The position numbers and the translations under genes are program-made. Shown piece by piece: positions 2 to 19,231 of a stretch of DNA of 20,077 bases (the stretch's first letter is position 1; each line of letters starts with the position of its first letter). Below the pieces are notes generated by a model, which made no database searches, was not told where the DNA came from, and worked only from the letters and a program-made list of their open reading frames with translations. The DNA comes from a virus, in IMG/VR virus record IMGVR_UViG_3300017782_003987, positions 1 through 20,077 of that record; one strand, 5' to 3'.

Positions 2-637
2 GCTGCGTCAAAATTGAATTTAGAAATTGCACAAACATTACGTGAAAGATCCCACGCGGCGTCTGCTGAGTTAGCAAAAACTTTAGGCGAGCCACCTTTA
101 CTAAAAGGTTATGGAATGCGTAATACTACAACGATGGCAATTGCTCCTACTAAATCATCGAGCTTTATTCTTGGGCAAGTATCACAATCAATTGAGCCTG
201 AGTTCAGCAACTGTTATGTTAAAGATCTGGCCAAAATGAAAGTTACAATCAAAAATCCATATCTACAAAAACTCCTTGAAGATAAAGGTGCAGATACCGT
301 AGAAACGTGGGATAGTATTAAAGCAAGAGATGGATCTGTGCAACACCTTGTAGAATTGCTGGATGAAAATGAACGAGCCGTATTCAAAACGTTTTCAGAA
401 ATTAATCCAAACGCAATTATTGACCAAGCCGCAATTCGTCAAGAATACATTGACCAATCGCAAAGTCTAAACCTAATGTTAGATCCTGATATGTCAGTTA
501 AAGAAATCAATCAAATGTATCTATATGCGTGGGAAATGGGTGTAAAGAGTTTGTACTACAGTTATTCAATGTCTGCAGCGCAATCACTTACTCGAAAGCG
601 TGTAATGTTAGAAGGTTGTGCAGCCTGCGAAGCTTAA
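2..637 (+). CDS. nrdA: Ribonucleoside-diphosphate reductase, large (alpha) subunit, C-terminal part (5' end outside window)
   Basis: This is the last 211 residues of class I ribonucleotide reductase alpha, which reduces ribonucleotides to deoxyribonucleotides for phage DNA synthesis. The open frame runs off the left edge. Visible family marks are MAIAPT (fragment residues 45-50), SQSIEP (61-66), the adjacent tyrosine pair in SLYYSYS (185-186, matching the radical-transfer Tyr730/Tyr731 of E. coli NrdA) and a C-terminal redox pair GCAAC (Cys206, Cys209) that would be re-reduced by glutaredoxin or thioredoxin; a glutaredoxin gene lies at 10576. The catalytic cysteines lie upstream of the window. 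The stop codon sits one base before the ALAS start. No nrdB follows here, although nrdA and nrdB are often neighbours in T4-like phages. Confidence 0.93.
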
Positions 638-638
638 T

Positions 639-1832
639 ATGAAACATTTGCACTATTTTAAAAATACAGTCGATAGTTATAGAGAAGATGGTCGTTATAG
701 AGTTTTTAATGATATCATAAGAGAACGTGGTAACTTTCCAAAAGCAATTTGGTATGGCAAATACGCTCCTAAGAATATTGTCAATTGGTGCTCAAACGAC
801 TATCTTGGTATGGGTCAAAACGAATATGTTATTGACGCTATGCACACAGCTTTAGACCAAACAGGATCAGGATCCGGCGGTACACGCAATATTGGCGGAA
901 CCTCGCAATACCATGTTACATTAGAAAGAGAACTTGCGTCGCTTCATAAAAAGGAGTCAGCACTTCTTTTCTCGTCCGCATATGTTGCAAACGAATGGGC
1001 TATTATTTCTTTAAGTAGAATTATACCAAACATATGTTTTATTTCTGACAACAAAAATCATGCGTCTATCATTATGGGCGTTAAGCACAGCCGTGCTGAT
1101 AAAATGATTTTTCATCATAACGATATGTCAGATCTCGAGGAAGCATTAACTATTGCAACAGAAAGTGGACAAGTACCTTGTATACTATTTGAGTCTGTGT
1201 ATTCTATGGATGGCGATGTTGCTCTTATTGAACAGATATTGGACTTAGCGGATAAATATAACGCAATTACGTATATTGACGAAGTACATGCCGTTGGTTT
1301 ATACGGCGAACAAGGTGGAGGTTATTGCGAGCACCTTGGTTTAGAAGACAGGGTAGATATTATTAATGGTACACTTGGAAAAGCATTCGGAGTTCAAGGC
1401 GGGTATATTAGTGGGAATCGTACTGTCATTGACGCTATTAGGTCCGTGGCTTCTGGGTTCATCTTTACAACAAGTATATCGCCCGCCGTGTGCGCCGGAG
1501 CAATTGCCTCAATCAAATTTCTCAAAGATCATACAGGCTTGCGATCCCAACATCAACAACGAGCAACAAAACTGAAACAATTGTTGAGCGAAGCTAATAT
1601 ACCAGTTCATGACTCGTGTTGCACACATATCGTCCCTGTAATGGTTAATGATGCGTTTAAGTGCAAAGACGCCAGTGATCGTTTGTTGAATGAGTATGGA
1701 ATTTATATTCAAGCAATTAATTCGCCAACCGTTAATGCTGGTACTGAAAGATTACGAATTGCGCCAACGCCGTATCACAATGACGTGATGATGGTAGAGT
1801 TGGTAGAAGCATTGAAAGAAGTGCTTAAATGA
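639..1832 (+). CDS. hemA: 5-aminolevulinate synthase (ALAS, Shemin pathway)
   Basis: This PLP enzyme would condense glycine and succinyl-CoA to 5-aminolevulinate, the first step of C4-type tetrapyrrole synthesis. It has 397 residues, the length of alphaproteobacterial ALAS. Family blocks are collinear throughout: GRYR (18-21), [11 protein letters not shown] (50-60), GSGGTRN (78-84), NHAS with His141, ESVYSMDGD (185-193), DEVHAVG with Asp214 and His217, GTLGKAFG with the PLP lysine Lys248, GFIFTTS (273-279), IVPVMV (331-336) and GTERLRI (368-374). Thr364 matches the substrate-specificity threonine region. ATG 639 is chosen over GTG 618 because it lies one base after the nrdA stop and gives the normal N-terminus; translation is probably coupled to nrdA. 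2-amino-3-ketobutyrate ligase and BioF are related, but the motif set is that of ALAS. Confidence 0.95.
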
Positions 1833-1927
1833 ACAATAATATGTTAACAGTCAAACTGATGTTATTTCTATGCGTGTTTTTACACGTTGTAGTAATACCA
1901 ATATGGATGTGGAGTTTAGGATTATGA
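1829..1927 (+). CDS. Tiny membrane peptide (32 aa), unknown
   Basis: A 32-residue frame opens with ATG overlapping the ALAS stop (ATGA) and ends by overlapping another ATG at 1924. After a polar start (MNNN) almost the whole peptide is hydrophobic ([19 protein letters not shown], then IWMWSLGL), enough for one membrane-spanning helix. The stop-start overlaps on both sides suggest translational coupling with hemA and the following membrane protein. No family is recognised. It could be a holin-like or regulatory micro-peptide, or only an uncoded spacer; the tight overlaps are the main support. Confidence 0.45.
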
Positions 1928-1977
1928 ATCAACTTGAGTCTGCATTCTTTGGAAAACGACTGTGGAAGGAAAATAAA

Positions 1978-2397
1978 ATGAGTAAGATTAAAAAAGCCTT
2001 TTGGTTTTGTCTAGGAATTATTTTAGTAGGAGTAGCGTATCTCGGCGTATTACTACCTGGTCTACCTTGGTCAACACCAATTCTTGGCGCAACGTTTTGT
2101 TTCGCTAAATCAAGTGACAGATTGCATGCATGGATTATGAACCATCCAAGGTTTGGTCCATTTGTTAAAAACTGGTCAAAGTACCGTGTATATCCAACCG
2201 CCGCCAAATGGCTGATGGTTGCAGTTATGTCCACGTCTTTGGCATTTATGTATTTTGGTACAGGTAATGAAAAAGCAACGCTTTACTTGTTTATTACATT
2301 CGCATTAATTGTTACCTGGGCATGGCGTTATCCTGGCTCACAGGCTATTGCTGAAGATCGCATTGCTAAAGGCAAAAAGATCGGTTGGCTAAAGTAA
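1978..2397 (+). CDS. YbaN/DUF454-family inner membrane protein
   Basis: A 139-residue membrane protein resembling E. coli YbaN (DUF454), a family of unknown function. Family marks are LGVLLPGLPWSTP (22-34) and CFAKSSDRLHAWIMNHPRFGP (41-61), the two best conserved stretches. Hydrophobic segments at about 7-27, 78-95 and 100-117 predict a small polytopic protein. ATG 1978 is chosen because AGGA lies seven bases upstream and the family N-terminus fits; an in-frame ATG at 1924, overlapping the preceding peptide's stop and with GGAG nine bases upstream, would add 18 residues. It lies between hemA and the sugar block. I cannot assign a role in the phage. Confidence 0.8.
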   Translation: MSKIKKAFWFCLGIILVGVAYLGVLLPGLPWSTPILGATFCFAKSSDRLHAWIMNHPRFGPFVKNWSKYRVYPTAAKWLMVAVMSTSLAFMYFGTGNEKATLYLFITFALIVTWAWRYPGSQAIAEDRIAKGKKIGWLK

Positions 2398-2439: not shown

Positions 2440-3465
2440 ATGGCAAAACGTATTCTAATTACTGGTGGCGGTGGTTTTATTGCTCACCATTTAATTAATC
2501 AGGTACTCCTCCGAACAGACTGGGAAATTGTAACGCTTGATCGTTTAGATTATAGCGGTAATCTCAATCGCCTCCATGATTTACTTCAGGAACGAACTCC
2601 TGCTGAGCGTAAACGTGTACGAACAATCTTCCACGACTTAAAGGCAGAAATCAACCCAATGCTCGAAGCAGACATTGGTCCTGTTGATATTATTGCTCAC
2701 CTGGCAGCTGGTTCCCACGTAGATCGTTCTATTGAGCGTCCTATGGAATTTGTTATGGATAACGTAGTGGGTACGGCTAATCTTTTAGATTATGGTCGTC
2801 GGCAAGACAATCTTGAAAGGTTCTTATACTTTTCAACAGACGAAGTATTTGGACCTGCTCCGGATGGAATTAAGTATGACGAATATGATCGTTATAATTG
2901 TACTAATCCATATTCAGCATCTAAGGCTGGAGCTGAGGAATTGGCTGTTGCATATCAAAATACTTATAATATGCCAATTTATATTACTCACACTATGAAT
3001 GTGTTTGGCCAACGTCAACATCCTGAAAAGTTTATTCCTATGACTATTCGGAATGTAAGAGATGGTGGTACTGTTACAATTCATAGCGATGCAAGCAAAA
3101 CAATACCAGGATCTCGTCATTACATTCACGCTGAAGATGTAGCTGACGCAACAATGTTTTTGCTAGAACACAATCGTACTTTAGATATGTCAAATAATAG
3201 TGGTATTAAATGTCCTAAGTTTAACATCTGCGGAGCAACCGAGCTTAACAATTTAGAACTCGCAAATCTTATTGCTGACGCACAAGGAAAGGAACTTAAA
3301 TATGAGTTTATGGATTTCCATTCTAGCCGTCCTGGCCATGATCTTCGTTATGCTCTTAGTGGTGATCGTATGGCGAATATGGGTTGGCGTCCGCAACCTG
3401 TTAGAGAAAGAATTGCTGAAGTGGTCCAGTGGACTTTAGATAACAGAAGGTGGCTTGACATATGA
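2440..3465 (+). CDS. NAD-dependent nucleotide-sugar dehydratase/epimerase (RmlB-like extended SDR)
   Basis: A 341-residue extended short-chain dehydrogenase/reductase acting on a nucleotide sugar. The Rossmann glycine motif is TGGGGFIAHH (8-17). HLAAGSHVDRS (87-97) is followed by FSTDEVFG (131-138) with the Ser/Thr and the Asp-Glu pair typical of 4,6-dehydratases, then catalytic YSASK (Tyr158, Lys162), the NVFGQRQHPEKFIP block (187-200) and a C-terminal RHYIHAEDVADA substrate-side motif (226-237). The TDE motif and the HPEKFIP block favour an RmlB-type dTDP- or similar sugar 4,6-dehydratase over a GalE epimerase. GAAAGG lies six bases before ATG. It overlaps the methyltransferase gene by ATGA, so the two are probably translated together. 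Confidence 0.88.
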   Translation: MAKRILITGGGGFIAHHLINQVLLRTDWEIVTLDRLDYSGNLNRLHDLLQERTPAERKRVRTIFHDLKAEINPMLEADIGPVDIIAHLAAGSHVDRSIERPMEFVMDNVVGTANLLDYGRRQDNLERFLYFSTDEVFGPAPDGIKYDEYDRYNCTNPYSASKAGAEELAVAYQNTYNMPIYITHTMNVFGQRQHPEKFIPMTIRNVRDGGTVTIHSDASKTIPGSRHYIHAEDVADATMFLLEHNRTLDMSNNSGIKCPKFNICGATELNNLELANLIADAQGKELKYEFMDFHSSRPGHDLRYALSGDRMANMGWRPQPVRERIAEVVQWTLDNRRWLDI

Positions 3466-4037
3466 ACTTTCAAACAATTATAAACCAAACATACAATGAG
3501 TGGTCCGCTAAGCCCACTGATATTAATGAGCATCTTCCGATTTTAAAAGACTATGCTGAACACTGTAAACACGTAACTGAAATGGGAGTTCGCCGTGGCG
3601 CGAGCTCTCGAGCATTCCTAACTTGCGATGTAGTGTTGCGGTCATATGACATTTACGAAGAACCAAGTGTTACTGAATTATTTGAAATGGCTCGTAAAGC
3701 AGGTAAGGATGTTGACTATATTATCAAAGATGTACTGCAAGTTAAAATTGAACCGACTGATATGCTGTTTATTGATACATGGCATTCACAGGCTCAACTA
3801 AGACAAGAACTTGCTATGCATGGTAATGTACCAACAAGATTCTTAGCATTTCATGATACTCATACATATGGTACTGTTGACGAAAGTATGGAGTGGGCGT
3901 CAAATCCAAACCGTAAAGCAATCAAAGGTCAAGGATTGCTTCCAGCCATTATTGAATTTATTATGGCAAATCCTCATTGGAAATTTAGAGACCATAGAAC
4001 AAACAATAACGGACTGACAGTATTAGAAAGATCATAA
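3462..4037 (+). CDS. Class I SAM-dependent methyltransferase-like protein
   Basis: A 191-residue protein resembling the small Methyltransf_24/CmcI-like group that often sits in polysaccharide clusters and O-methylates sugars. VTEMGVRRGASS (38-49) looks like SAM motif I with acidic Glu40 and the Gly42/Gly46 pattern, LFIDTWHSQAQLRQEL (102-117) matches the xxIDxxHxYxxvxxDL region, and AFHDTHTYG (129-137) matches the conserved HDT stretch of this group. It lies between a sugar dehydratase (4-base overlap) and a GT17 glycosyltransferase that starts on the next base after its stop, which supports a sugar-modifying role. Substrate unknown. Confidence 0.7.
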   Translation: MNFQTIINQTYNEWSAKPTDINEHLPILKDYAEHCKHVTEMGVRRGASSRAFLTCDVVLRSYDIYEEPSVTELFEMARKAGKDVDYIIKDVLQVKIEPTDMLFIDTWHSQAQLRQELAMHGNVPTRFLAFHDTHTYGTVDESMEWASNPNRKAIKGQGLLPAIIEFIMANPHWKFRDHRTNNNGLTVLERS

Positions 4038-5606
4038 ATGAAAATTGTAGATTGCTTTCCATTTTTTGCTCCGACTAACGAAGAAATTCTGCAGCTTCGG
4101 GTTAATATGCTAAAAGATGTGGTTGATAACTTTATCATCGTTGAGTCTAATAAGACACACAGCGGTGCGCCTGTTGAAAGAAAGTTTCTTGAAATTGCAA
4201 GGAACCTTGGACTTCCTATGGAAAAAATCATTTACATTGAGCATGATATTCCTGACGATAATGATTTGGTTGTAATGCCAATTGACCAGCAAAATGCCGG
4301 TAAAAATAGTAGCATAGAATCTATACTGTGCCGTGTACGTGAGCGTCTGCAAAAAGATGCTGTTATGGAAGGTATGAAAGATTTTGACTCGGATGATGTT
4401 TTTATATATGGCGATGCAGACGAAATCGTAGATCCTAAAAACGTAAAGTGGTTAGCTGAACTCGTTCAACAAAATAGTAATCACTCCATTCTTAAAATAC
4501 CTTTAGTTTATTTACAAGGCAGAGCTGATTTAAGAGTATATCATAAATCGACAGGTGCCTTTAGAATTTGGCAACGAGCTATGTTTATGGCAACTAAACA
4601 CCAGGTTAACAGGTCAGGTGGTATGTTAAACATTCGCTGTGGCAATATGCCATTTAAGCTACAGTTTGCAATGCACGGCGGACAAATGATACAAGATCTT
4701 GGTTGGCATTTTGCATGGATGGGAACAAACTCTCAGCGTGAAACGAAAGCCAAATCTTTTGCACATGCTTTTGATAAACTTCAATGGATGAAAACGCTAG
4801 ATGGTTATAACGATGGAGCATATAAGAAATTTGTAAAGGATACACAACCAGTTGAAGGTGGACCTGCTCCTGACGGATTTGCAGACCACGTGTTGAAAAG
4901 ATATCCACTTGCCAAACTTCCATCTATGCTTTTGCAAAATCAAAAGTTAAGAGATTTCTTTTTACCTGAAACAGACTTGTTTAAAGAATTCAAGTTTTCA
5001 CCTTGCGAATGTTTTTGGTGCAATAAACTTTCATGGCCTTTATTATATGATCTTGACGGAAAACAAACTTGGTTTGAAGTGCCAAGAAGTTGTTCGGTTA
5101 CAATTAAGGAAACGCATCCTGACCGAAAGCAAATCTTTAGAGATACAAAAGAATATAAAGCAGTCATAAAAAACAAAAAGGATAAAGGTACACCTATAGT
5201 CGTATTCACAGATCCCGTTGAAAGGTTCGTTTCTTTAATCAATGTATACTTAACTGAAGGTCAAAGATATTACGATTACGGAAAGGATATTTTCAATTCA
5301 TTTGGTAAAAACCTTGCTGAGTGTACTAAGCAAGAAAAGATAGACTTGTTCTTTAAAAATCTCCATAAAATATCAGGTGCGCATCAAGTACATCATTTCC
5401 ATCCTCAATGTATGTTTGTTGATACTAAAAACTTTAAAGAGTTTCAAGTTATTAATAAACACGAAGTCAATAACTTTTTTAAAATAAACAAAGTACTAAA
5501 CTTTACAGTAAAAGAAATCACCGCAGACGATTTCAGTAAAGACCAAATTGACTTTATTAAATGGATTTACATTTCAGATTACAATTTCTTTGAAAAGCAC
5601 GGCTGA
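4038..5606 (+). CDS. Glycosyltransferase family 17 fused to a C-terminal sulfotransferase-like domain
   Basis: A 522-residue two-domain protein. Residues 1 to about 290 look like GT17 (the family of beta-1,4-GlcNAc transferase III): MKIVDCFPFF (1-10), RVNMLKDVVDNFIIVESNKTHSG split across 21-43, the metal-binding YGDADEIVDP (124-133) and GWHFAWMG (222-229). Residues about 318-522 look like a Sulfotransfer_2 domain: VPRSCSVTIK (348-357) fits the 5'-phosphosulfate loop, IVVFTDPVERFVSL (387-400) the 3'-phosphate strand and helix, HFHPQ (453-457) the HFRPQ motif, and IKWIYISDYNFF (507-518) the usual C-terminal helix. A CECFWC cysteine cluster (323-328) lies at the domain join. It could add a sugar and sulfate it using PAPS. 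The domain assignments come from remembered motifs. Confidence 0.82.
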   Translation: MKIVDCFPFFAPTNEEILQLRVNMLKDVVDNFIIVESNKTHSGAPVERKFLEIARNLGLPMEKIIYIEHDIPDDNDLVVMPIDQQNAGKNSSIESILCRVRERLQKDAVMEGMKDFDSDDVFIYGDADEIVDPKNVKWLAELVQQNSNHSILKIPLVYLQGRADLRVYHKSTGAFRIWQRAMFMATKHQVNRSGGMLNIRCGNMPFKLQFAMHGGQMIQDLGWHFAWMGTNSQRETKAKSFAHAFDKLQWMKTLDGYNDGAYKKFVKDTQPVEGGPAPDGFADHVLKRYPLAKLPSMLLQNQKLRDFFLPETDLFKEFKFSPCECFWCNKLSWPLLYDLDGKQTWFEVPRSCSVTIKETHPDRKQIFRDTKEYKAVIKNKKDKGTPIVVFTDPVERFVSLINVYLTEGQRYYDYGKDIFNSFGKNLAECTKQEKIDLFFKNLHKISGAHQVHHFHPQCMFVDTKNFKEFQVINKHEVNNFFKINKVLNFTVKEITADDFSKDQIDFIKWIYISDYNFFEKHG

Positions 5607-5894: not shown

Positions 5895-5910
5895 TAAATT
5901 GAGGCACACA

Positions 5911-6438
5911 ATGAAACTGAAACAAATTATCGCAGCAACAGTATCCGCAGCTTTGACAGGAACAGTAGTTATAGGATCTCTTACACTACCTGTAATTGCG
6001 GCCGAGCAAGAAAGACTATGGTCAGAACAAGAAGCTAACTGCTTGGCTTTAAACATATACTATGAATCACGTGGCAGCAACCTTGCGGATAAAGCTGGAG
6101 TTGCAGATGTAGTTTTAAATAGAAAGTACGATACACGTTATCCTAACACAATATGCGAAGTTGTCCAGCAAGGCATTAAAAATGCAGACGGTTCAATGAA
6201 GCGTAATATGTGCCAGTTTAGCTGGTACTGCGACGGAAAATCTGATAACCCACAAGATCAGGATCGTTGGAATGAAGCTCAAATGATTGCGTCACAATTA
6301 CTTGAGTGGGGAAAATACCGTGGCATTACCGAAGGAGCCACTCATTATCATGCAACTTATGTAAGTCCGCGTTGGGCTAAAGACCTTCAGCAGGTTGGCC
6401 GTCTTGGTGCTCATATCTTTTATCGTTGGGATCAGTAA
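5911..6438 (+). CDS. Secreted SleB-type cell wall hydrolase
   Basis: A 175-residue peptidoglycan hydrolase of the SleB/Hydrolase_2 family. The N-terminus has a basic start, a hydrophobic stretch (about 5-28) and a likely signal cleavage after VIAA (28-31), so export is expected. The catalytic domain shows LNIYYESRG (47-55) with the predicted catalytic Glu52, GVADVVLNR (63-71), YPNTICEVV (77-85), CQFSWYCDG (101-109), GATHYHATYVSPRWA (142-156) and HIFYRW (168-173), all SleB hallmarks. ATG 5911 is chosen because GAGG lies six bases upstream and the signal peptide begins there; the in-frame TTG at 5899 would fall on the late box. It could help lysis or cell-wall opening. Dual early and late promoters would be unusual for a lysis enzyme. 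Confidence 0.88.
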   Translation: MKLKQIIAATVSAALTGTVVIGSLTLPVIAAEQERLWSEQEANCLALNIYYESRGSNLADKAGVADVVLNRKYDTRYPNTICEVVQQGIKNADGSMKRNMCQFSWYCDGKSDNPQDQDRWNEAQMIASQLLEWGKYRGITEGATHYHATYVSPRWAKDLQQVGRLGAHIFYRWDQ

Positions 6439-7309: not shown

Positions 7310-7634
7310 CAGCTGGGTAATATTTAAAGTAAAAAACCACGAAACACCACACTATCGGTTATTATGTGGTTGGAACGAAGGTTATGAGGCCGCAAAGGCA
7401 AAGACTGAATGGAAAATATCTGGAGGAATTTTGGAGTGCAGGGAATCAGAAGATGGATTGTCTTGGATATTTATGACAGCTAAATCTGAATATGTGTGCG
7501 ACAAATCATCTTATCAAGTTGAAAACCACGTTTACCATGTATGGCAAACAATGATAGACGATCCGGATAAAGATGTAGAACAAATTGCTTATCGTGATTT
7601 GCAGGTTGAAAAAATGGAATGGCTTAAATTATGA
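7287..7634 (+). CDS. Hypothetical protein
   Basis: A 115-residue protein, aromatic-rich (eight Trp) and predicted mostly beta in its first two-thirds (SWVIFKVKN, HYRLLCGWNEGYEAAKAKTEWKISGG across 9-46). The GWNEGY stretch suggests a small fold used for a ligand or protein contact, but no family is recognised. It starts inside the previous gene's end and overlaps the UDP-sugar dehydrogenase start by ATGA, so it is probably co-translated with it. Confidence 0.65.
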   Translation: MLKQWNPSSWVIFKVKNHETPHYRLLCGWNEGYEAAKAKTEWKISGGILECRESEDGLSWIFMTAKSEYVCDKSSYQVENHVYHVWQTMIDDPDKDVEQIAYRDLQVEKMEWLKL

Positions 7635-8410
7635 AAATTCAAATAGCAGGATACGGGTTTGTTGGAAAGGCTCACGCGTTTGCTCTTGCAGGTAAAAACG
7701 ATAATGTAACTGTTTACGATCCTGCGTTAGGATATACAAATTGGGATGAAAATACTGACTGCGTTATTATTGCAGTCAGTACACCACAGCATGAAGATGA
7801 TGGATCTTGTGATATGCGTAATGTGTATGGAGTTCTTGAAACATGCCCTGATGTTCCAATTTTAATTAAATCAACTATTAGTCTAGAAGGATGGGTCTCA
7901 ATTGAAAATAATTTCCCTGATAAACAAATTACGTTTTCGCCAGAATACCTCAGAGCTAAGTATGCTGTTGAAGATTTTAAAAAGCAACAAGTAATACAGC
8001 TCGGCGGCGGTGACGTTGCGTTCTGGGTAGATATATTAGGAAAAAGATTAGGCTGCAAATTAGAAGTAGCAGATCCTAAAGAATTAATTTTAGCTAAATA
8101 CTTTATCAATTCATTCCTAGCGACCAAGGTTTCGTTCTTTAATCAGATTTATGATTTGTGCGAAGCCGCAGGAGTTGATTATGCATTAGTATCTCACTTT
8201 GTAACGCAAGACCGCAGAATAGGAAAAAGCCATACGACTATTACGCGTGAACGTGGATTTGGTGGACATTGCTTTCCAAAAGATACGAGCGCTATATGCA
8301 GGACAGGTGAACGTTATGGAGAAAATATGTCTATTATTGAAGCTGCAAGAAAATACAATGAAAACCTAAAAGTGGATACATCAAACGTGATTAGTATTGT
8401 TAGGTCATAA
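7631..8410 (+). CDS. UDP-glucose/GDP-mannose dehydrogenase family protein, short form
   Basis: A 259-residue member of the nucleotide-sugar dehydrogenases that oxidise a sugar C6 alcohol to a uronic acid using 2 NAD+. Visible: NAD motif GYGFVG (7-12), AVSTP (48-52) with DDGSCD (56-61), FSPEYLRA (102-109), the central ELILAKYFINSFLATKVSFFNQI (151-173) with Lys156 and Asn160, and GFGGHCFPKD (209-218) carrying the catalytic Cys214 plus Lys217 and Asp218. Usual members have about 390-450 residues; the C-terminal nucleotide-binding domain is missing here. The stop is a clean TAA followed at once by the cytidylyltransferase ATG, so this is not an obvious frameshift. Confidence 0.88.
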   Translation: MKIQIAGYGFVGKAHAFALAGKNDNVTVYDPALGYTNWDENTDCVIIAVSTPQHEDDGSCDMRNVYGVLETCPDVPILIKSTISLEGWVSIENNFPDKQITFSPEYLRAKYAVEDFKKQQVIQLGGGDVAFWVDILGKRLGCKLEVADPKELILAKYFINSFLATKVSFFNQIYDLCEAAGVDYALVSHFVTQDRRIGKSHTTITRERGFGGHCFPKDTSAICRTGERYGENMSIIEAARKYNENLKVDTSNVISIVRS

Positions 8411-8411
8411 A

Positions 8412-8819
8412 ATGAAGGTTGGGTTTACAGCATCAGCATTTGATTTACTACATGCAGGACATGTACAAATGTTAAGAGACGCAAAAGAACAGTGCGATTA
8501 TTTAATTTGTGGTTTACAAATCAATCCAACTTTAGATCGCCCTGATAAGAACGCTCCCGTGCAAACTGTGGTTGAGCGCTATACGCAATTAAAAGCTATA
8601 AGTTACGTTGATGAGATCATTCCGTATTTGACAGAAGGTGATCTTTGTGATATATTATCAATGTACCATATAGATATTCGTATCCTCGGAGTTGAGTATA
8701 AGGAAAAAGATTTTACAGGTAAAGACATTTGCCGTAAACGTGGTATAGATTTATATTTTAATAAACGGGATCACCGTTTTAGTACAAGTGATTTAAGAAA
8801 GAGAGTTTGTAATGACTGA
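8412..8819 (+). CDS. TagD-like nucleotidyltransferase (cytidylyltransferase family)
   Basis: A 135-residue protein of the HxGH nucleotidyltransferase superfamily, closest in layout to glycerol-3-phosphate cytidylyltransferase (TagD) and the RfaE C-terminal type. It has FDLLHAGHVQML (10-21) with the nucleotide-binding HAGH at 14-17, RYTQLKAISYVDEIIP (56-71), ILGVEYKEKDF (91-101) and the closing RFSTSDLRKRV (122-132), equivalent to the ISTT loop. It would activate a phosphorylated sugar or polyol with CTP or another NTP. ATG 8412 is chosen over TTG 8397 since it follows the dehydrogenase stop by one base. It pairs with the dehydrogenase as a sugar-activation unit. Confidence 0.85.
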   Translation: MKVGFTASAFDLLHAGHVQMLRDAKEQCDYLICGLQINPTLDRPDKNAPVQTVVERYTQLKAISYVDEIIPYLTEGDLCDILSMYHIDIRILGVEYKEKDFTGKDICRKRGIDLYFNKRDHRFSTSDLRKRVCND

Positions 8820-9270: not shown

Positions 9271-9431
9271 TGTGGATATTATTTGTCATATCGTTTATTC
9301 CAGAATATAATGATTATAAAGTTGTAGAGTTTAACCGTTATAATACACGGCAGCAGTGTGATATTAACCAAGCAGTGTTACGGGCAACTTTTGAGGATAA
9401 TGAATTAACGGCGTGCGCATGGCAAAACTAA
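9270..9431 (+). CDS. Small protein with hydrophobic N-terminus and two cysteines (53 aa)
   Basis: The ATG uses the last base of the preceding stop; AAGGAG at 9253-9258 may serve as ribosome site. The 53-residue product begins MWILFVISFIP, a short hydrophobic segment that could be a signal or membrane anchor, and has Cys30 and Cys49 (QQC and TACAW), a pattern common in small exported phage proteins that form one disulfide. Function unknown. Confidence 0.55.
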   Translation: MWILFVISFIPEYNDYKVVEFNRYNTRQQCDINQAVLRATFEDNELTACAWQN

Positions 9432-10141
9432 GAAAATTTATATTTGACGTTGACGGAACTCTTACTCCTAGTCGTGCAAAAATAGACTTCCATTTTGAAA
9501 AATGGTTTTGGGGTTTTATCCAAACAAACAAAACATGGCTTGTTACTGGCAGTGATTATCCAAAAACATTAGAACAGCTCGGCAAAAACATTTGCGAAGA
9601 AGTTGTTACTGTTTATAATTGCAGCGGAAACGAAACAAGATTTAAAGGCAAGATTGCCAACGCATCAAGTTGGACATTGCCAGACACTGCTCGTCATTGG
9701 TTAGAAATGGAACTCATTCGTTCACCATTCCAACCACAAACTGGTAATCATATTGAAGAACGCCGCGGTTGTGTTAACTTTAGCATTGTAGGACGTAACG
9801 CAACACCAGAACAAAGAGAGCAATATGTTAAGTATGACAAAATAAATAATGAACGCCTACATATTTCTAGAACTTTCAATTATGTGTTTGGTTCTGAAAG
9901 TACTTGTCTTACCGCTCAAATTGGTGGCGAAACTGGTTTAGACATTTATCCTATTGGTAGAGATAAAGCTCAAATCGTTCAGGATTTCAGTATGGATGAT
10001 GAAATTTATTTCTTTGGAGATAAGATGGAAATTGGTGGAAATGATTGGCCTCTCGCCAACACTCTTAAAGACTATCCTAATGCTAAATGCTTTCAAGTTA
10101 AGGATTGGCAAGATACGTGGGAAATTTTGAAAGGACTTTAA
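9419..10141 (+). CDS. Phosphomannomutase of the eukaryotic PMM (HAD) type
   Basis: A 240-residue HAD-fold protein whose motifs match eukaryote-type phosphomannomutase, which interconverts mannose-6-phosphate and mannose-1-phosphate on the way to GDP-mannose. It has FDVDGTLTPSR (9-19) with nucleophile Asp10 and acid/base Asp12, VTGSDY (42-47), NFSIVGRNATPEQRE (120-134), IGGETGLDIYPIGRDKAQ (168-185) and FFGDKMEIGGNDWPLA (198-213), the last two typical of PMM. Usual PMM length is about 245 residues, so it is complete. ATG 9419 is preferred to GTG 9413. Neighbouring sugar dehydrogenase and transferase genes support a nucleotide-sugar role. A related HAD sugar phosphatase is the alternative. Confidence 0.87.
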   Translation: MAKLRKFIFDVDGTLTPSRAKIDFHFEKWFWGFIQTNKTWLVTGSDYPKTLEQLGKNICEEVVTVYNCSGNETRFKGKIANASSWTLPDTARHWLEMELIRSPFQPQTGNHIEERRGCVNFSIVGRNATPEQREQYVKYDKINNERLHISRTFNYVFGSESTCLTAQIGGETGLDIYPIGRDKAQIVQDFSMDDEIYFFGDKMEIGGNDWPLANTLKDYPNAKCFQVKDWQDTWEILKGL

Positions 10142-13257: not shown

Positions 13258-13515
13258 ATGACAAATGATGAAATGAAAGATAGCCTGCACCAAGGCATGT
13301 GTAAAGTTGTTTTTACAAAAAAGAATGGTGACGAACGCATTATGCATTGTACCCTTCAAGAATCAATGTTACCAGAGCAAATGGACATTGAAGAAGAAAT
13401 TCAAAAAAAGAAACCAAACCCTGATGTCCTAGCAGTATGGGATGTTGAAGCCAAAGGTTGGCGTTCATTCCGTTGGGACTCAATTAAAGATTTTAGTACG
13501 GAGTTTAATCTATGA
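13258..13515 (+). CDS. SH3-like small phage protein (WYL_2/DUF2693-like)
   Basis: An 85-residue protein with the pattern CKVVFTKKNGDERIMHCTL (15-33), followed by VLAVWDVEAKGWRSFRWDSIKDF (57-79). The first part, a beta hairpin with KNGxxRxMxCTL, and the WRSFRWDSI end match the small SH3-like phage family annotated as WYL_2/DUF2693, to my memory. Such proteins are thought to bind nucleic acid or protein. It overlaps the glycosyltransferase start by ATGA. Confidence 0.75.
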   Translation: MTNDEMKDSLHQGMCKVVFTKKNGDERIMHCTLQESMLPEQMDIEEEIQKKKPNPDVLAVWDVEAKGWRSFRWDSIKDFSTEFNL

Positions 13516-14474
13516 GCTGTATTTACCAAGGTAAAATTATTGAAACAGAACAGTCCAAAAATTCATTAGGTGGAACTGAAATGATGCGTCAGCGCGTTAT
13601 TGATAATGTGCAAAGTGATATCTTGCAGGATTTTGCTATTCACTTCTCACGCCCTCGTGAAATGTACACTAACGTAAAAAACATTATGTACTGTCACGAC
13701 TTGGCTGAAGATCCTGAAAACAAAGTTCTTACAAATAACGGATGGAAAGAATTTGACCATTTTGTTTTTGTAACAGCATGGCAACGAGACATGTACATTG
13801 CTTATTATAACATTCCGTACTCAATGTGTTCAGTAATTCCTAATGCTGTTGAAAAGCCTTATAATCCAAAACTTGATAAAGATGCAAATGAAATCCGTTT
13901 GATTTATCATACTACTCCGCATCGTGGTCTTGAGCTCTTATATCCAATCGTAGACGCATTGTCTAAAGATTATCCAAACATTCATCTTGATGTATATTCT
14001 TCCTTTGCAATTTATGGGTGGGTTGAACGCGATGATCCGTATGTTGAATTGTTTACGAAAATCCATGCTCACCCTAATATGACATATCACGGCTCAGTTT
14101 CTAACGAAAAAGTACTCTCCGCATTGGATAAATCTCATATCTTCCTATACCCAAACATTTGGAAAGAAACATCTTGCATTGCGTTGATTGAAGCAATTAA
14201 GAGTGGCTTGCTTTGTATCCATCCAAATTATGGTGGACTAACTGAAACCGCAGCTAACGCAACAATTACATATGATTGGCATGAGGATCCTAACGTCCAT
14301 GCTAATCGAGCTTTTTCAGTTGTAAAGCAGGTATTGGATATTCAAAAGCAAGATCCAAACTTCATTCCAAAGTTTACAACGTCAGATCGCTTTAATTTAG
14401 CACGGAACAGTATAAATAGTTTTGCGAATAGTTGGAACAGACTGCTCCAAGATTTAAATAACGATGGAAAATAA
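13512..14474 (+). CDS. GT-B glycosyltransferase (family 1/4 type)
   Basis: A 320-residue GT4-like glycosyltransferase. It has an N-terminal GGTEMM loop (20-25), MYCHD (59-63), VTAWQRDMY (87-95), VIPNAVE (108-114) linking the two domains, IYHTTPHRGLELL (131-143) with the donor-phosphate Arg138, and KETSCIALIEAIKSG (218-232) carrying the EX7E pair Glu219 and Glu227, followed by NYGGLTE (239-245) for the nucleotide-sugar. It would transfer a sugar from a nucleotide-sugar donor, retaining configuration. The acceptor is unknown. It may act with the sugar genes upstream, although those are 3-8 kb away. Confidence 0.88.
   Translation: MSCIYQGKIIETEQSKNSLGGTEMMRQRVIDNVQSDILQDFAIHFSRPREMYTNVKNIMYCHDLAEDPENKVLTNNGWKEFDHFVFVTAWQRDMYIAYYNIPYSMCSVIPNAVEKPYNPKLDKDANEIRLIYHTTPHRGLELLYPIVDALSKDYPNIHLDVYSSFAIYGWVERDDPYVELFTKIHAHPNMTYHGSVSNEKVLSALDKSHIFLYPNIWKETSCIALIEAIKSGLLCIHPNYGGLTETAANATITYDWHEDPNVHANRAFSVVKQVLDIQKQDPNFIPKFTTSDRFNLARNSINSFANSWNRLLQDLNNDGK
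14411..14418 (+). promoter_or_regulatory. Possible intragenic late promoter box TATAAATA
   Basis: An exact TATAAATA lies near the 3' end of the glycosyltransferase gene, 59 bases before ATG 14478, and codes in-frame for part of the conserved-looking C-terminus. Its distance from the next start fits a late promoter, but an octamer of A and T is expected by chance in AT-rich DNA. Confidence 0.35.
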
Positions 14475-14880: not shown

Positions 14881-15741
14881 ATGGCAATTCTAGTAGATTA
14901 CAACCAAGTTATCCTTGCTTCGCTATTCGCAAGCATCGGTAACCATCATAATGTGGACATTGACGAAAATCTTATCCGTCATATGTTCCTAAATTCAATC
15001 CGGTCTAACCGTAAAAAGTTTACCGAACAATATGGAGAAATCGTAATATGTGCTGATGGCAAAAATACATGGCGCCGTGAGCTATATCCTTATTACAAAG
15101 CTAATCGTAAAAAGTCTCGTGATGAGTCTGAACTTGATTGGACTCAGCTATTTGGTATTATGAATACCATCCGAGATGAGCTTAAGGAATTCTTTCCATA
15201 CAAAGTTATTCATATGGACCATCTTGAGGCTGATGATATCATTGGTACCATCATCCATGAAAACGGTGCTATCTTAAACGGCGGTGCAGAACCTTTCTTG
15301 GTTCTATCCGGTGATAAAGATTACATCCAATTACATACGTATGCTAATGTGGATCAGTTTGACCCAGTTCGTAAACGTTGGATCCGTAATGACAATCCTG
15401 ACCAATATTTGGTTGAGCACGTCTTAAAAGGTGACACTGGTGATGGTGTTCCGAATATTCTTTCACCAGACAATTGTTTAGCTGTTGGCCAACGCCAAAA
15501 ACCTATGACCAAAAAACGCCTTGAGCAATTCCGCAATGGCACGGATGGTATGGATGAAGAAACATTACGACGCTATCACCGTAATAAAACCATGATTGAT
15601 TTGTCTCAAATTCCGGCAAATTACCAAACAGCAATTCTTGAAGAGTACAGCATTGACAAAGAAGTTGGTCGTTCAGAACTCTTTAACTTTTTTGTTAATC
15701 GCAAACTCAAAAACCTAATTTCAGACATACAGGATTTTTAA
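14881..15741 (+). CDS. rnh: RNase H (T4-type 5'-3' exonuclease)
   Basis: A 286-residue FEN-1-family nuclease like T4 RNase H (about 305 residues), which removes RNA primers and adjacent DNA from lagging-strand fragments. It has VDYNQV with Asp6, ICADGKNTWRRELYPYYKANR (56-76) with Asp59, LEADDIIG (115-122) with Glu116, Asp118 and Asp119, LSGDKDYIQL (142-151) with Asp145 and Asp147, and GDTGDGVPN (184-192), the helix-three-turn-helix DNA-binding motif. All expected metal ligands are present. In T4, rnh lies beside dsbA, 33 and 59; here a different small gene follows directly after the stop. Confidence 0.93.
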   Translation: MAILVDYNQVILASLFASIGNHHNVDIDENLIRHMFLNSIRSNRKKFTEQYGEIVICADGKNTWRRELYPYYKANRKKSRDESELDWTQLFGIMNTIRDELKEFFPYKVIHMDHLEADDIIGTIIHENGAILNGGAEPFLVLSGDKDYIQLHTYANVDQFDPVRKRWIRNDNPDQYLVEHVLKGDTGDGVPNILSPDNCLAVGQRQKPMTKKRLEQFRNGTDGMDEETLRRYHRNKTMIDLSQIPANYQTAILEEYSIDKEVGRSELFNFFVNRKLKNLISDIQDF

Positions 15742-18128: not shown

Positions 18129-18878
18129 ATGGCTAGACAGCGAAGACTATCCAGGAAAGAACGACGTAGACAAGAACGAGAAGAGGAAAACATGATGCGT
18201 GTTTTAAACACCAAGTTTTCAATGCGGGCAGTTAAACCGCTAACACCATCTCAATCTGATTTATTTAATTCTTACGAAAGAGGGTATAATCTCGCAGCCA
18301 TAGGAACAGCAGGTACAGGAAAAACAATGTGTGCTACATACTTGGCACTCAATGATGTACTACAGAAAGGAGAGTATGAAAAGGTCGTCATAATTAGATC
18401 TGCAGTTCAAACACGCGAGCAAGGCTTTATGCCTGGGTCAAAGGCCCAAAAGGAGGCGGTATTCGAAGGTCCGTATACCGACATCGTTAACGATCTATTT
18501 AGCAGAGGAGATGCTTATCAAGTTTTAAAACAAAAAGGTATGATTGAATTTATGAGTTCATCGTTTGTAAGAGGACTCACGTTTGATAATTCAGTCATTA
18601 TAGTAGACGAATGTCAATCTATGACGTACCATGAACTTGATACTATTATCACACGTGTAGGAGAGTCCTCAAAGATTATCTTCTGCGGTGATACAAAGCA
18701 AGACGATCTTCAACAATCTCGAAACAGAGCAGATATCTCAGGTCTTTACGATTTTGTAAAGGTTCTAAATGCTATCCCATCTTTTGGTGTGGTAAGATTT
18801 GGAGTTGAAGATATTGTTCGTTCAGGATTAGTTAAAGAATATATAATTGCAAAAGAAAAACTTTTAGAGGCTGCATAA
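18129..18878 (+). CDS. phoH: PhoH-like ATPase
   Basis: A 249-residue PhoH-family P-loop ATPase; the exact role in phages is unknown. It has a highly basic N-terminal tail (RQRRLSRKERRRQERE, 3-18), LTPSQSDLFNSY (38-49), Walker A GTAGTGKT (59-66), VIIRSAVQTREQGFMPG (residues 88-104) and Walker B VIIVDECQ (156-163), followed by GDTKQDD as sensor. AAGGAGGT (18118-18125) is a near-perfect ribosome site, preceded by a 6-base stem TGTTAT/ATAACA (18101-18118). The stop overlaps the PAAR start by one base. Confidence 0.93.
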   Translation: MARQRRLSRKERRRQEREEENMMRVLNTKFSMRAVKPLTPSQSDLFNSYERGYNLAAIGTAGTGKTMCATYLALNDVLQKGEYEKVVIIRSAVQTREQGFMPGSKAQKEAVFEGPYTDIVNDLFSRGDAYQVLKQKGMIEFMSSSFVRGLTFDNSVIIVDECQSMTYHELDTIITRVGESSKIIFCGDTKQDDLQQSRNRADISGLYDFVKVLNAIPSFGVVRFGVEDIVRSGLVKEYIIAKEKLLEAA

Positions 18879-19231
18879 TGGCGTTAGCTGCACGCGGAGA
18901 CACAATAGAAACAGTAGATACAGTTCATCCAGCATCAGGAGATGCGGTGGCAAACGATGGATCTAATTGTGACGTAAATTCAATAAACACTTCAACAGAC
19001 GCGTGTAGCGGAAAAGTTTTTGCACAAGGTATCGGCGTTGTCAGATTTGGCGATGCCGTTACCAATCATATACAAGGCGGTGTTTGTACTAATCATGCAA
19101 TCGCGCCTACTCTTAACACAGGTTCATCTAAGGTGAAAATTGAAGGAAAGAAAGCAGGGCGCAAAGGTGATACATATTCTTGCTCTGCTGAAATCAAAAC
19201 AGGAGCGCCTAAAGTAGATATAGGCGGCTAA
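18878..19231 (+). CDS. PAAR-domain baseplate spike tip protein
   Basis: A 117-residue PAAR protein, the cone that caps the central spike of T4-like baseplates (T4 gp5.4) and of type VI secretion tubes, helping to pierce the host envelope. Repeated short beta elements are visible: MALAARGDTIETVDTVHPASGD (1-22), VVRFGDAVTNH (54-64), TGSSKVKIEGKKAGRKGDTYSC (81-102) and IKTGAPKVDIGG (106-117). His17, His64, His73 and several Cys (31, 43, 70, 102) are candidate zinc ligands. It overlaps the phoH stop by one base, so its message includes phoH, a non-structural gene. Confidence 0.88.
   Translation: MALAARGDTIETVDTVHPASGDAVANDGSNCDVNSINTSTDACSGKVFAQGIGVVRFGDAVTNHIQGGVCTNHAIAPTLNTGSSKVKIEGKKAGRKGDTYSCSAEIKTGAPKVDIGG

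What the first reader, a model, noticed from the sequence alone, without database searches (positions are those of the whole stretch)
639..1832. Complete Shemin-pathway ALAS gene in a T4-like phage
The protein keeps every catalytic element expected: Arg21, the GTRN loop, His141, Asp214, His217, Lys248 and the C-terminal GTERLR arginines, at positions that match bacterial ALAS numbering almost one to one. It is flanked by nrdA, so it belongs to the phage. Such a gene would raise 5-aminolevulinate supply during infection, either for heme/B12-dependent enzymes or for bacteriochlorophyll in a phototrophic host. ALAS points to an alphaproteobacterial host. I recall that ALAS genes have been reported in aquatic phage sequences, so the family may be known, but its setting here, next to a DUF454 membrane protein, may not be.
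Basis: partly seen in the sequence, partly recalled or inferred. Interest (0 to 1): 0.75.

Follow-up and report, generated by a model that had tools for sequence, protein, structure and literature searches.

The report
Phage gene for making heme precursor
A T4-like aquatic phage carries an intact gene for the enzyme that makes the first building block of heme, a kind of phage gene published in 2024, and its frequent neighbour, a membrane protein of unknown function, may be a partner that has been overlooked.

Summary
The gene is real and intact: window 639-1832 encodes a 397-aa 5-aminolevulinate synthase (TIGR01821, 565 bits, cut-off 339). It lies in a T4-like phage and nests in a well-supported phage clade near Pelagibacteraceae. 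This kind of gene is already published: 'valaS' (Wegner et al. 2024, PMC11480375), with E. coli complementation and loss of the heme-feedback site, also lost here. So the enzyme is a new member of a known kind.

What that paper's main text does not mention is the neighbour. The DUF454 (YbaN-type) membrane protein lies on the held stretch in 54 of 81 phage ALAS loci, in several different gene contexts, and beside each of the three phage ALAS lineages in the tree. In an nrdA-anchored control with enough flank, 22 of 22 ALAS-bearing loci had DUF454, against 8 of 27 without ALAS (related phages). A 221-kb relative also carries heme oxygenase and a bilin reductase, about 27 kb from its ALAS. Host and a bacteriochlorophyll role are unsupported. 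DUF454's role is inferred; a small bacterial test showed no linkage to heme oxygenase.

The parts
639..1832 (+). 5-aminolevulinate synthase (ALAS, vAlaS-type), 397 aa, intact
2..637 (+). 3' part of the ribonucleotide reductase large subunit gene (nrdA); its 5' end is outside the window; ends 1 nt before the ALAS ATG
1924..2397 (+). DUF454 (PF04304, YbaN-type) membrane protein; start uncertain: ATG at 1924 (MNQLE leader shared with 9 of 11 close relatives checked) or ATG at 1978 (139 aa); longest ORF starts at 1870
   Evidence: model with mean pLDDT 89 and three long helices
2440..3465 (+). NAD-dependent epimerase/dehydratase (nucleotide-sugar), next gene in many relatives of the window's own lineage
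14881..15741 (+). phage exonuclease, annotated RNaseH or flap endonuclease in phage records; a phage marker
18129..18878 (+). PhoH-like protein, a phage marker
19240..19911 (+). phage exonuclease (phrog_298)

Best explanation
The gene is a phage-adapted 5-aminolevulinate synthase (vAlaS). It most likely condenses glycine with succinyl-CoA to 5-aminolevulinate during infection. Because the heme-feedback residues are missing, it should keep the tetrapyrrole pathway running when host control would shut it down. It lies directly after nrdA and is followed by a small DUF454 membrane protein that recurs with phage ALAS and is probably part of the same module, most likely in handling heme, iron or a porphyrin at the membrane. 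A 221-kb relative with the same gene order also carries heme oxygenase and a bilin reductase elsewhere in the genome, so ALA made here may feed heme for respiration and, in part, bilins. Shown: identity, intactness, phage clade, purifying selection, missing feedback residue, DUF454 association. Inferred: activity of this protein, lack of feedback inhibition, host, and the role of DUF454.
For: ALAS model far over cut-off; catalytic residues kept wherever the 81 sequences reach them. Tree: window inside a 45-row clade, 100/99, of 40 viral rows and 5 genome-contig rows; Pelagibacteraceae and two further phage lineages lie just outside. Purifying selection, window against L002: dS 0.685, dN 0.085. 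His342 of 2bwn (recalled as Rhodobacter capsulatus ALAS) aligns with K341; 0 of 81 phage ALAS have His there, and 1 of 81 has a Cys in its C-terminal tail. A homologue complements E. [quoted passage not shown] DUF454: 54 of 81 ALAS loci; 22 of 22 ALAS-bearing nrdA loci with over 4.5 kb downstream. 28 of 35 called window ORFs have counterparts in the same order on a 221-kb phage record that also has heme oxygenase and bilin reductase.
Against: No activity was measured for this protein. Neither heme oxygenase nor bilin reductase is on the window itself (0 of 1), which is a 20-kb fragment. DUF454 also occurs without ALAS: in 8 of 27 ALAS-less nrdA loci, and in 23 of 24 DUF454 records without nearby ALAS none was found elsewhere on the record (many are fragments). 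Two ALAS records of 49.6 and 67.8 kb lack DUF454. In bacteria I saw no linkage: 0 of 10 genomes with heme oxygenase had DUF454 on the same contig as it.
Confidence: 0.88

Rival explanations
1. The protein is another alpha-oxoamine synthase (BioF, Kbl, serine palmitoyltransferase-like or quorum-signal synthase) and not an ALAS.
For: These models match with significant E-values.
Against: All of them score below their curated cut-offs, ALAS is 226 bits above its own; residues R21, T82, N84 and R373, recalled as the succinyl-CoA recognition set, are kept; the tree places it among ALAS.
Confidence: 0.02
2. DUF454 is a bystander: phages that carry ALAS share a hot spot for accessory genes, so the pairing reflects common descent and position, not function.
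Against: The pair recurs in different contexts and on either side of ALAS; in 18 of 54 loci the called frames overlap. L158 has a Pelagibacteraceae-type ALAS (70.3% to L164, 60.6% to L154) but a DUF454 89.3% identical to L154's: the ALAS differs, the partner stays. A single clade of all phage ALAS without Pelagibacteraceae is rejected (p-AU 0.0019).
Confidence: 0.35
3. The ALAS mainly feeds bilin or bacteriochlorophyll synthesis rather than heme for respiration.
For: A bilin-reductase-type gene directly follows ALAS in 7 of 81 loci (one member checked by Pfam), and heme oxygenase plus bilin reductase are on the 221-kb relative.
Against: Of 26 ALAS-bearing records searched, 18 lack heme oxygenase and 15 lack bilin reductase; several are fragments. 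A sister lineage pairs ALAS with alternative oxidase, recalled as a respiratory enzyme. Bacteriochlorophyll genes were not searched for.
Confidence: 0.2

Closest known systems
vAlaS (valaS) of aquatic phages, Wegner et al. 2024 (PMC11480375; parts 1-3 of 8 read, abstract to end of discussion, plus a term search of the main text)
   Same: Phage-borne ALAS, phage clade apart from most bacteria, Pelagibacteraceae as close bacteria (paper: about 55% identity; here L164 57%), loss of the heme-feedback His, broken cassette with heme oxygenase and bilin reductase in a relative.
   Different: Window ALAS sits between nrdA and DUF454, an arrangement the main text does not mention; the paper's assayed enzyme (phage CB_2) was not compared letter for letter here.
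Solved ALAS 2bwn (recalled as Rhodobacter capsulatus) and 7x98
   Same: Near full-length alignment, catalytic residues kept.
   Different: Residue His342 of 2bwn is Lys here; the protein ends at residue 397, before the position of Cys400.
DUF454 / YbaN family (PF04304)
   Same: Window neighbour passes the family cut-off. ybaN is listed in E. coli Fur regulons (PMC10164565, PMC7157518; passages). DUF454 and heme oxygenase are both among the commonest domains co-occurring with cluster 1 type 11 secretion genes (PMC12282271, passage).
   Different: Function unknown; no link to ALAS seen in the titles, abstract starts and passages shown; no solved structure matches the model with E at or below 0.001 (0 of 58 matches).

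Membership tests
5-aminolevulinate synthase (TIGR01821) | Score above curated cut-off, with related families below theirs | tested here: met
   564.9 bits vs 338.55; all BioF, Kbl and SPT models below cut-off
5-aminolevulinate synthase (TIGR01821) | PLP lysine and substrate-binding residues (R21, T82, N84, H141, D214, H217, K248, R373) | tested here: met
   roles of the residues are recalled except the lysine (PMC11480375)
[quoted passage not shown]
   needs an enzyme or complementation assay
Phage vAlaS (Wegner et al. 2024) | Nests in a phage clade apart from bacterial ALAS | tested here: met
   45-row clade, 100/99: 40 viral rows, 4 genome-contig rows with phage neighbours, 1 row that looks truly bacterial
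Phage vAlaS (Wegner et al. 2024) | One or both heme-feedback residues (R. capsulatus His342, Cys400) missing | tested here: met
   K341 in place of His342; protein ends at residue 397; 0 of 81 rows have His
Phage vAlaS (Wegner et al. 2024) | Heme oxygenase and bilin reductase genes in the same phage (not required; stand-alone valaS is reported) | tested here: inconclusive
   absent from the 20-kb window; present about 27 kb from ALAS in a 221-kb relative
DUF454 (PF04304) | Pfam gathering score | tested here: met
   94.9 bits vs 35.1

The most novel reading that the evidence does not exclude
DUF454 (YbaN) is a dedicated tetrapyrrole or iron partner of phage ALAS: a small membrane protein that phages keep beside whichever ALAS they acquire, and which would give a functional lead for a widespread, iron-regulated bacterial protein of unknown function. 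In sister phages the module also takes up alternative oxidase, suggesting a phage programme that keeps host respiration running while heme supply is reset.
Probability: 0.4. Interest if true: 0.65.

Novelty: new member of a known kind. Interest (0 to 1): 0.4.

Why it matters
The enzyme adds a member, in a lineage of roughly 200-kb T4-like phages, to a published phage gene family. The association is the useful part: it names a testable partner for phage ALAS and ties the unknown DUF454/YbaN family, already known to respond to iron, to tetrapyrrole metabolism from an independent direction.

Tried and rejected
Isolated phages: tblastn of the ALAS against 50,697 phage records gave 19 matches, best 35.5% identity; the 6 with gene annotation are Kbl or BioF, and I read most as host DNA in phage-labelled records. 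The DUF454 gave 7 matches there, which I read the same way. PHROGs gave no family for either protein at E 0.001.

DUF454 fold: good model (pLDDT 89) but no solved structure with E at or below 0.001, so the fold gave no mechanism.

Bacterial linkage of DUF454 to heme oxygenase: 229 genomes sampled from one class, 10 with heme oxygenase (9 over cut-off), 4 of those 10 with DUF454, none on the same contig as the heme oxygenase. This small test goes against a general link in bacteria.

Control by terminase relatives: dropped, because most of the 80 records are short fragments. The nrdA-anchored control replaced it: of 80 loci, 31 with 4.5 kb or less downstream were dropped before the count; of those 31, 4 had ALAS without DUF454 on contigs that end soon after ALAS, 3 had both and 24 had neither. 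Some of the 80 lie on the same contigs as the ALAS set, and one of the 8 DUF454-only loci (L361, record G001) has an ALAS elsewhere on its record. The Fisher p of 1.3e-7 treats related phages as independent and is not used as a probability.

DUF454-anchored scan: 53 of 77 loci carry ALAS in the held flank, but the query alignment came from ALAS neighbours, only the best 80 of at least 572 relatives were kept, and several loci lie on contigs of the ALAS set, so this number leans towards ALAS.

The bacterial side of the tree rests on one pattern-based scan (best 80 of 130 confirmed), so a closer bacterial ALAS could have been missed. The place of L144 is weakly supported (94/33, long branch).

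Host: the terminase of the 221-kb relative is nearest to Sinorhizobium phages phiN3 and phiM12 (58-59%), and the window RNaseH to Methylophilales phage Melnitz (51%). No host can be named.

Full report
WHAT IS THERE. Window 639-1832 (+) encodes an uninterrupted 397-aa protein. It scores 564.9 bits to the ALAS model TIGR01821 (cut-off 338.55), while glycine C-acetyltransferase, BioF and serine palmitoyltransferase models remain below their own cut-offs. The best solved chains are ALAS, first 7x98 and 2bwn. Against relative L002, dN is 0.085 and dS 0.685, so the protein is under purifying selection.

IT BELONGS TO A PHAGE. Upstream is the 3' end of nrdA, ending 1 nt before the ALAS ATG. Elsewhere on the window are an RNaseH-type exonuclease, PhoH and another phage exonuclease. 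A 221-kb virus record (L086, handle G050) has counterparts of 28 of 35 called window ORFs in the same order, 30-94% identical. Its terminase is nearest to Sinorhizobium phages phiN3 and phiM12, which I recall as T4-like.

TREE. In an IQ-TREE tree of 79 ALAS proteins (42 viral, window included, and 37 from genome contigs, thinned by identity from 179 distinct ones), the window lies in a 45-row clade with support 100/99. Of the 5 genome-contig rows in that clade, four (L159-L162) have matches to the phage protein set around them and an adjacent DUF454, so I read them as phage contigs binned with bacteria. The fifth (L163, Neisseriaceae bacterium PsAf) has 7 other called ORFs, none matching the phage set, and looks like a phage gene taken up by a bacterium. 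Pelagibacteraceae L164 and L165 lie just outside, with two other phage lineages: L158, which groups with them at 100/99, and L144, whose place is weakly supported. One clade of all phage ALAS (with the five) that leaves Pelagibacteraceae out is rejected, p-AU 0.0019. The direction of transfer between L158 and Pelagibacteraceae is not proven.

ALREADY KNOWN. Wegner et al. 2024 (PMC11480375; read from the abstract to the end of the discussion) described viral alaS in aquatic phages, showed complementation of E. coli ST18 and 5-ALA formation by the CB_2 enzyme, and noted that many vAlaS lack His342, Cys400 or both. Here His342 of 2bwn aligns with K341, 0 of 81 phage ALAS have His there, and 1 of 81 has a Cys in its C-terminal tail. 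The ALAS is therefore a new member of that kind. A search for Shemin, phage and heme oxygenase from 2023 on found only that paper.

THE NEIGHBOUR. DUF454 (PF04304, 94.9 bits) follows ALAS. In the ALAS-anchored set it is on the held stretch in 54 of 81 loci (80 viral loci plus the window), directly next in 17 and directly before in 6. In 14 of the 54 the called reading frames overlap by 4 nt. A search of whole records, covering the 27 of 80 viral loci that lacked it (and 12 others), found it in 4 of those 27; of the 23 left, 21 are records of 25.7 kb or less. Collapsing ALAS at 85% identity gives 25 groups, 21 with enough flank or a hit, 17 of them with DUF454. The contexts differ: nrdA-ALAS-DUF454; ALAS, alternative oxidase, another membrane-like protein, DUF454; DUF454-ALAS-bilin reductase; ALAS-DUF454 pairs among genes on the other strand.

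CONTROLS. Anchoring on nrdA instead, 49 of 80 loci had more than 4.5 kb downstream: 22 with both genes, 0 with ALAS alone, 8 with DUF454 alone, 19 with neither. Of 24 DUF454 records without ALAS nearby, 1 has ALAS elsewhere, 5 have heme oxygenase and 6 a bilin reductase. L158 carries a Pelagibacteraceae-type ALAS (70.3% to L164, 60.6% to L154) beside a DUF454 89.3% identical to that of L154. Against: no linkage of DUF454 to heme oxygenase in 10 bacterial genomes, two ALAS records over 40 kb without DUF454, and the phages in these sets are related to one another and overlap between sets.

LITERATURE ON DUF454. ybaN is in E. coli Fur regulons (PMC10164565, PMC7157518), a DUF454 gene rises under iron restriction in Avibacterium (PMC7970244), and DUF454 and heme oxygenase both co-occur with cluster 1 type 11 secretion genes (118 and 137 of 1,111; PMC12282271); only passages were read. 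Of the 7 papers listed for DUF454 and the 30 listed of 31 for ybaN, none has a title or shown abstract start about phages. The main text of the valaS paper has no mention of DUF454, YbaN or nrdA; its figures and supplements were not seen.

MECHANISM. Most likely ALAS supplies 5-ALA without heme feedback during infection, sustaining heme for respiration, with part going to bilins where heme oxygenase and bilin reductase are present; the 221-kb relative has these at 143997-145454 and ALAS at 172945-174141. DUF454 is probably a membrane accessory of that pathway; transport, iron or heme handling cannot be told apart. Its AlphaFold model has three long helices (4-26, 75-96, 99-117) and four shorter ones.

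VERDICT. Observation confirmed; the enzyme belongs to a published kind; the DUF454 association is the new and testable part.

Noticed in passing
L028, L031, L032 (3409-3972), L035-L038, L042, L043, L053-L055: An alternative-oxidase family lies in 12 of 81 ALAS loci, directly after ALAS in 10; one member was checked (PF01786, 239 bits). An AOX-anchored scan gave 80 phage loci (best of 210), 23 with ALAS. Two paper searches on alternative oxidase and phages or marine viral genomes listed cyanophage, algal- or plant-virus and unrelated papers (listings only).
   Followed up: partly
L163:4983-6170: Neisseriaceae bacterium PsAf has an ALAS inside the phage clade, with 7 neighbouring ORFs that match no phage protein held: a likely phage-to-bacterium transfer. 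Its genome also has a heme oxygenase.
   Followed up: partly
L067-L069, L077-L080 (for example L067:3775-4446): A bilin-reductase-type gene directly after ALAS in 7 loci, with DUF454 directly before ALAS in 6 of them.
   Followed up: yes
L159, L160, L161, L162: Apparent phage contigs binned as Rhodobacteraceae Water_Bin34, Neomarinimicrobiota and Flavobacteriales genomes; L161 also has an alternative-oxidase-type ORF at 7638-8231.
   Followed up: partly
window 2440-5606, 7631-8819, 9413-10141, 13512-14474: Several sugar-related genes: epimerase, glycosyltransferases, UDP-glucose dehydrogenase-like, cytidylyltransferase-like and phosphomannomutase-like proteins.
   Followed up: no
window 5899-6438 and 18878-19231: Cell-wall hydrolase (PF07486) and PAAR-motif protein (PF05488).
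   Followed up: no
window 1870-1977: Possible N-terminal leader of DUF454 (MNQLE) shared in frame by 9 of 11 close relatives checked, so the true start is unclear.
   Followed up: no
L111 around the nrdA-nrdB-DUF454 stretch: nrdA-nrdB-short ORF-DUF454 without ALAS, the same order as in ALAS-bearing relatives.
   Followed up: no
phage records OR844998.1, OR847847.1, CAKLQH020000007.1 and others: Several phage-labelled public records hold Kbl, BioF or YbaN-type genes that look like host DNA.
   Followed up: no
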